The notes beneath the pieces were generated by a model. That model was given only the letters and a program-made list of their open reading frames with translations, was not told where the DNA came from and made no database searches. The position numbers were made by a program, and so were the translations under genes. From an uncultured Opitutaceae bacterium (lineage in GTDB: Bacteria > Verrucomicrobiota > Verrucomicrobiia > Opitutales > Opitutaceae): DNA of 64,000 nucleotides. The stretch spans positions 1 through 64,000 of the forward strand of contig CAITBM010000132.1 of assembly GCA_903890485.1 (NCBI GenBank). Reading direction: 5' to 3'. This document shows, piece after piece, positions 53,927 through 54,725 of the stretch; the stretch's first letter is position 1; each line of letters opens with the position of its first letter.

Positions 53927-53992
53927 GGCGGGTGATCCTCGTCGCAGCGATTGCGCCCATGGCTTGAGGTATCAATTTGTCCATTTCAGCTT

Positions 53993-54025
53993 GATTAATC
54001 AGATTATCAGATTATCAGATTATCA
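53993..54025 (+). repeat. GATTATCA tandem array before the antitoxin
   Basis: Three exact copies of GATTATCA (54002-54009, 54010-54017, 54018-54025) follow one variant copy, GATTAATCA (53993-54001), whose first eight bases are a perfect palindrome. The array ends two bases before the antitoxin ATG, so it fills the ribosome-binding region. No Shine-Dalgarno sequence is visible. AT content is far higher than in the flanks. Confidence 0.85.
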
Positions 54026-54027
54026 CG

Positions 54028-54300
54028 ATGGATTCAAAAACGATCACGGTCACAGAGGCCTCTCGAAATTTCTCCGAGCTGGTGAGCCGTATCCACTTCC
54101 AAGGCGGCAGCGCAGTGCTGCTAAAGGGAGGCAAGGCGATGGTGAAGATGATGCCCGTTCGGAGGCCGCTCACAGGGGCGGATCTCGCTCTCCTCTGGCC
54201 CGCCTTTCCCCGCCTGGATCCCAGGGACGCTGCGAACTTTGAACATGAACTGGCCAGGTCCCGCAGGGAGTTGCCTCCCCTTGTGTCAAAATGGGGCTGA
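54028..54300 (+). CDS. Phd/YefM-type antitoxin
   Basis: A 90-residue protein. The N-terminus MDSKTITVTEASRNFSELVS is the Phd/YefM fold that dimerises and binds DNA, and the segment GGSAVLLKGGKAMVKMMPVR completes it. The C-terminal tail is polar and ends in LPPLVSKWG, likely the toxin-binding part. The next gene, a PIN toxin, overlaps it by ten bases. The repeat array upstream may be its operator. Confidence 0.85.
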   Translation: MDSKTITVTEASRNFSELVSRIHFQGGSAVLLKGGKAMVKMMPVRRPLTGADLALLWPAFPRLDPRDAANFEHELARSRRELPPLVSKWG

Positions 54301-54711
54301 TCTTAGACAGCGATGTTCTGATTTCATCTGAGCGGCGGCGGTTCGATCTCCCCGCTTTCTTGAGCGCAAACGGCAAGGAGCACCTCTTCATCGCGGCCGT
54401 CACGGCGTCGGAACTCTTGCACGGAGTTGAGCGCGCAACTGCAAAGTGGAAAGAGAGCCGCTCGCTTTTTGTTGAGCGCGTCCTCTCGACCATCGAGACC
54501 ATTGACTTTGACATTCATGTGGCGCGTCGCCACGCGACGATCTGGGCCAAATTAGAGGCATCGGGAAAACTCATCGGCGCACACGACATCCAGATTGCCG
54601 CCACCGCCCTTCACCATGGCCACGGCCTAGTGACCTTGAATACGCGTGAATTCGAGCGGGTTGCAGGATTGCACCTGCCGGATCCCCGCCCCTACGTCTT
54701 GACCGAGGGAG

Positions 54712-54725
<14 letters not shown>
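54291..54725 (+). CDS. VapC-type PIN-domain toxin
   Basis: A 144-residue PIN ribonuclease. Acidic active-site residues are Asp6 and Asp8 in MGLILDSDVLISSERRR, Glu in AAVTASELLHGVERA, Asp in LIGAHDIQIAATALHHG, and a last acid near LVTLNTREFERVAGL. PIN toxins cleave tRNA or rRNA. The whole acidic set looks intact. The start at 54291 overlaps the antitoxin by ten bases. The end overlaps rluD on the opposite strand by 14 bases, consistent with insertion into a compact locus. Confidence 0.88.

What the first reader, a model, noticed from the sequence alone, without database searches (positions are those of the whole stretch)
53993..54027. GATTATCA tandem array in place of the ribosome-binding site of a Phd antitoxin
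Three exact and one variant copy of an 8-base unit end two bases before the antitoxin ATG. An 8-base step changes promoter and start spacing without changing the protein. Slippage could therefore switch or tune antitoxin level, while the palindromic variant copy may be an operator. I know of no described toxin-antitoxin phase switch of this form.
Basis: partly seen in the sequence, partly recalled or inferred. Interest (0 to 1): 0.6.

Follow-up and report, generated by a model that had tools for sequence, protein, structure and literature searches.

The report
Eight-base operator array before an antitoxin
The 8-base repeat in front of this toxin-antitoxin gene pair is most likely the landing strip on which the antitoxin switches off its own promoter, a layout shared by distant relatives of the pair, and nothing found here shows that it acts as a slippage on/off switch.

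Summary
53991-54025 holds a 9-base palindromic variant plus three exact GATTATCA units, ending two bases before the ATG of a Phd/YefM-like antitoxin (54028-54300) whose frame overlaps a PIN (VapC-like) toxin (54291-54725). It is the longest period-8 run in the window (20 matches; simulated maxima 7-13).

The array is best read as an autoregulatory operator. Upstream of 25 homologous antitoxins from other genomes, ATC and GAT half-sites alternate on one 8-bp lattice (lag-8 z = 13.4 without the window; 26 unrelated Phd-like genes show almost none). The lattice overlaps a -35/-10 whose -10 ends 6-9 nt before ATG in many members, so the mRNA is probably leaderless. That explains the missing ribosome-binding site.

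The phase-switch idea has no support. The exact array occurs in one genome only. Three close species of another genus keep operator length unchanged. Relatives carry imperfect, shorter lattices. The closest congener has lost array, start codon and toxin together.

What is new is the 8-bp close-packed lattice for a Phd-type antitoxin (YefM uses TGTACA pairs 12 bp apart), plus a second Phd subfamily with a 5-bp pitch whose unit number does differ between close species. Binding is not shown.

The parts
53991..53996 (+). putative -35 element TTGATT
   Evidence: inference from homologues: TTGACA/TTG.. at the same place, 16-17 bp from a -10; below the threshold of the generic promoter scan
53992..54001 (.). 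TGATTAATCA, perfect 10-bp palindrome containing the variant (9-base) repeat copy; upstream end of the operator lattice
54002..54025 (.). three exact GATTATCA units = alternating ATC/GAT half-sites on an 8-bp lattice; with the variant copy, 7 in-phase half-sites
   Evidence: same lattice in homologues
54013..54018 (+). putative -10 element TATCAG, 16 bp from TTGATT, ending 9 nt before ATG (leaderless or nearly leaderless mRNA)
   Evidence: inference
54028..54300 (+). Phd/YefM-like antitoxin, 90 aa
   Evidence: PF02604 E 7e-5, below cut-off; profile finds homologues in 34/252 family genomes and 40/387 phylum genomes
54291..54725 (+). PIN-domain (VapC-like) toxin, 144 aa, overlapping the antitoxin frame by 10 nt
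   Evidence: PF01850 52 bits; NCBIfam VapC models below cut-off; overlap conserved in homologues

Best explanation
The array is the autoregulatory operator of a Phd-PIN toxin-antitoxin operon. Antitoxin dimers, alone or with the toxin, bind neighbouring ATC-N-GAT / GAT-N-ATC dyads that repeat every 8 bp. This covers the region from the -35 to the start codon and represses transcription of both genes. The -10 lies inside the array and the transcript starts at or within a few bases of the ATG, so no ribosome-binding site is needed. Shown: array, lattice conservation in homologues, operon structure. Inferred: promoter elements, leaderless start, binding, repression, co-repression by toxin.
For: Upstream 60 bp of 25 homologous antitoxins (window excluded): lag-8 longest-run z = 13.4, against |z| <= 1.6 at every other lag from 3 to 15 (2.6 at 16); ATCnGAT/GATnATC words 34 against 2.4 expected; 26 unrelated Phd-like genes show 3 such words and lag-8 z 2.3. 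Half-site spacings peak at 8 and 16 (same type) and 4, 12 and 20 (opposite type). 20 of 27 loci have at least 3 in-phase half-sites; the window has the most, 7. L050/L053/L055/L046 conserve TTGACx-17-TATGAT around the operator while flanks diverge. -10 elements end 6-9 nt before ATG in many homologues. Control in the same genome: the YefM-like gene in L005 has GTACATGTAC and TGTACA, the known YefM operator word, between TTGACA and its ATG. A 2026 structure paper gives a Phd dimer site of about 8 bp (PMC13034048).
Against: No binding or transcript data. The window's own -35/-10 match consensus only 4/6 each and the generic scan finds no promoter. Several homologues (L043, L046, L051, L056, L079, L080) have only one in-phase half-site by the strict ATC/GAT count. 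The antitoxin scores below Pfam's cut-off and its profile finds no solved Phd structure. Sequences are related, so z-values overstate significance.
Confidence: 0.85

Rival explanations
1. Slippage-driven switch or rheostat: unit gain or loss changes -10-to-ATG distance and operator length and so turns the operon up or down.
For: Three perfect units. Geometry predicts an effect: with one unit fewer the first -10 would end 1 nt before ATG and a leaderless message would lose its start codon (inference). In another Phd subfamily with 5-bp units, antitoxins 96-100% identical differ by one unit in TTGCC-to-ATG length, 40 against 35 nt.
Against: Only one genome carries the array. Homologues keep the lattice with substitutions, not as pure arrays. 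L050/L053/L055 show no 8-bp length change in the operator. Three to four 8-base units is a short array for high-rate slippage (general knowledge). No paper found on such a TA switch.
Confidence: 0.06
2. Neutral microsatellite-like expansion in an AT-rich promoter, with no regulatory role.
For: Exact repetition of the spacer letters suggests recent duplication of a unit.
Against: The same 8-bp lattice recurs across families and classes of the phylum in front of this antitoxin subfamily and hardly at all before other Phd-like genes.
Confidence: 0.05
3. Binding site for an unrelated host regulator.
For: None direct.
Against: No other place in the genome carries the exact lattice ATCnGATnATCnGATnATC; the word follows the antitoxin subfamily across genomes.
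Confidence: 0.04

Closest known systems
YefM-YoeB / Axe-Txe operators (Phd/YefM superfamily)
   Same: Antitoxin N-domain binds repeated palindromes overlapping -10/-35; spacing matters for cooperative binding (PMC4803016, PMC7730913)
   Different: Two TGTACA palindromes 12 bp centre to centre; here ATC-N-GAT dyads every 8 bp, 3-4 sites, promoter abutting ATG, PIN toxin
Phd-Doc operators (P1 / E. coli; E. faecalis)
   Same: Palindromic sites read by Phd dimers; site about 8-10 bp (PMC13034048)
   Different: Two adjacent palindromes or a single one, not a tandem lattice; Doc, not PIN, toxin
omega repressor heptads (pSM19035, omega-epsilon-zeta)
   Same: Repressor array on short repeats (NATCACN, 7 bp) at its promoter, one dimer per unit (PMC4803016)
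   Different: Ribbon-helix-helix regulator, not an antitoxin; 7-bp unit
mazEF alternating palindrome
   Same: Overlapping alternative dyads in an autoregulated TA operator (PMC4803016)
   Different: AbrB-type MazE; no 8-bp tandem units

Membership tests
Phd/YefM antitoxin (PF02604) | Pfam match over the gathering score | tested here: not met
   22.9 of 29.8 bits, E 7e-5; 7 of 8 aligned homologues match at E<0.01
Phd/YefM antitoxin (PF02604) | small protein encoded directly before, and overlapping, its toxin gene | tested here: met
   10-nt overlap, conserved in most homologues
Phd/YefM antitoxin (PF02604) | Phd fold / relation to solved structures | tested here: inconclusive
   profile search of the PDB finds no Phd chain; fold not predicted
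VapC / PIN toxin (PF01850) | PIN-domain match over cut-off | tested here: met
   52.4 bits against 23.6
tRNA(fMet)-specific VapC (NCBIfam) | equivalog score over cut-off | tested here: not met
   82 of 140 bits
YefM-type operator | TGTACA palindromes 12 bp apart | tested here: not met
   none in 53930-54027; ATC-N-GAT lattice instead
phase-variable simple sequence repeat | unit number varies between isolates or cells | not testable with these tools
   no second genome with the array; no reads
autoregulated TA operon | antitoxin or complex binds the operator and represses | not testable with these tools
   comparative evidence only

The most novel reading that the evidence does not exclude
Phd-type antitoxins read operators that are close-packed lattices with a subfamily-specific pitch (8 bp here, 5 bp in a second subfamily, 12 bp in YefM). 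The number of units, which drifts by slippage, sets repression strength and, at leaderless promoters, whether the start codon is transcribed: a heritable tuning or switching of a whole toxin-antitoxin operon.
Probability: 0.12. Interest if true: 0.65.

Novelty: new variant of a known kind. Interest (0 to 1): 0.4.

Why it matters
It gives a concrete operator code for an uncharacterised Phd-PIN subfamily spread through a phylum, and a simple test of how operator pitch follows antitoxin type. It also explains why these genes lack ribosome-binding sites. It lets operator length be altered in whole units to measure cooperative repression.

Tried and rejected
Searching for the exact array in 94 relatives gave nothing. 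A viral-contig match to the 24-mer lies beside no Phd gene and was set aside. The plasmid search found only more distant VapC toxins. The generic promoter scan found no promoter. The idea that only the palindromic copy is the operator was rejected because the lattice runs through all units.

Full report
OBSERVATION. 53991-54030 reads TTGATTAATCA GATTATCA GATTATCA GATTATCA CG ATG. The variant (GATTAATCA) is one base longer than the unit and sits in the 10-bp palindrome TGATTAATCA. The period-8 run of 20 matches is far beyond the 7-13 seen in simulations of the window. The exact double unit occurs only here in the 3.1-Mb genome, and the triple unit in none of 94 relatives at up to two mismatches.

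GENES. The downstream pair is a 90-aa Phd/YefM-like antitoxin (PF02604, E 7e-5 but below Pfam's cut-off) and a PIN-domain toxin (52 bits), overlapping by 10 nt. The pair sits between ppx and a convergent rluD-type gene that lie side by side in six congeners, so it is an insertion. In the closest congener (G004, ppx 74% identical) the same place holds a decayed antitoxin with no start codon, no array and no toxin.

HOMOLOGUES. A profile of eight antitoxins (A1) finds relatives in 34 of 252 family genomes and 40 of 387 phylum genomes. Nearly all strong matches are followed by a PIN toxin related to this one. Reading upstream of their start codons shows the same grammar in different letters: GATTATCTGATTATCTGATTTTA (L073, another family), ATAATCTGATTATCTG-ATG (L048), AATCTGATTCTCTGATTTTC (L052, same genus), ATCATATTATCATATTATCAG (L041), ATAAAATCATAAAATCTGATTTTATGATTTTATG (L072, where the lattice includes the start codon).

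STATISTICS. In 25 homologues without the window, self-match at lag 8 gives z = 13.4 for longest runs. No other lag from 3 to 15 exceeds 1.6, and lag 16 gives 2.6. ATCnGAT/GATnATC words number 34 against 2.4 expected. Twenty-six other Phd-like genes from the same searches have 3 such words and lag-8 z 2.3. Distances between half-sites peak at 8 and 16 for like, and 4, 12 and 20 for unlike, half-sites: 55 of 121 and 86 of 152 pairs are in phase where about one in eight is expected. 20 of 27 loci carry at least three in-phase half-sites and the window carries seven, the most. Sequences more than 80% alike upstream were dropped in the lag test, but the rest share ancestry, so z-values are descriptive.

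PROMOTER. In L046, L050, L053 and L055 a TTGACA/TTGACG-17-TATGAT promoter brackets the operator, and the -10 ends 6 nt before the start codon. Similar geometry (6-9 nt) is found in L041, L048, L073, L074 and L076 and, weakly, in the window (TTGATT-16-TATCAG, 9 nt). Transcripts would begin at or next to the ATG. In more distant relatives (L075, L077, L079) the promoter lies 22-26 nt up and an SD-like stretch is present. Leaderless TA transcripts are common in M. tuberculosis (PMC8485053). So the array replaces a ribosome-binding site because none is needed; that is inference until 5' ends are mapped.

CONTROL. The YefM-like antitoxin elsewhere in the same genome (L005) has GTACATGTAC and TGTACA between TTGACA and its ATG, the word known for YefM operators (PMC7730913). 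The reading method thus recovers a known operator.

MECHANISM. A Phd dimer site spans about 8 bp in one solved complex (PMC13034048), so one 8-bp unit per dimer, side by side, is the simplest model. Which dyad is read cannot be told from sequence. Toxin as co-repressor is assumed from the superfamily.

SLIPPAGE. Against a switch: relatives' lattices are imperfect, and three close species keep operator length. For it: unit loss should matter at a leaderless promoter, and a second Phd subfamily with a 5-bp pitch, (AGACC)n-TT-(GGTCT)n, differs by one unit in length between species whose antitoxins are 96-100% identical. Unit number can therefore drift in such operators on evolutionary time; a cellular switch is not shown.

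VERDICT. Real and conserved; an ordinary function (TA autoregulation) in an unusual operator form.

Noticed in passing
L134-L163, 60 bp before antitoxin ATG: A second Phd-like subfamily has (AGACC)n-TT/AA-(GGTCT)n operators with a 5-bp pitch (lag-5 z 25.7) up to the ATG. Length from TTGCC to ATG is 40 nt in L134 but 35 in L135 and L136, whose antitoxins are 96-100% identical over the query.
   Followed up: partly
L099 (G004), directly after ppx: Closest congener keeps a decayed antitoxin at the syntenic site without start codon, array or toxin; degenerate copies are also seen in L058 and L059.
   Followed up: partly
G444 loci L115, L118, L120, L122-L133: One genome of the family holds about twenty matches in (ATCCGATC)n-type arrays at several places; their neighbours were not read.
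   Followed up: no
L005, about 1420-1500: YefM-like antitoxin of the same genome with GTACATGTAC / TGTACA directly before its ATG, also without a ribosome-binding site.
   Followed up: partly
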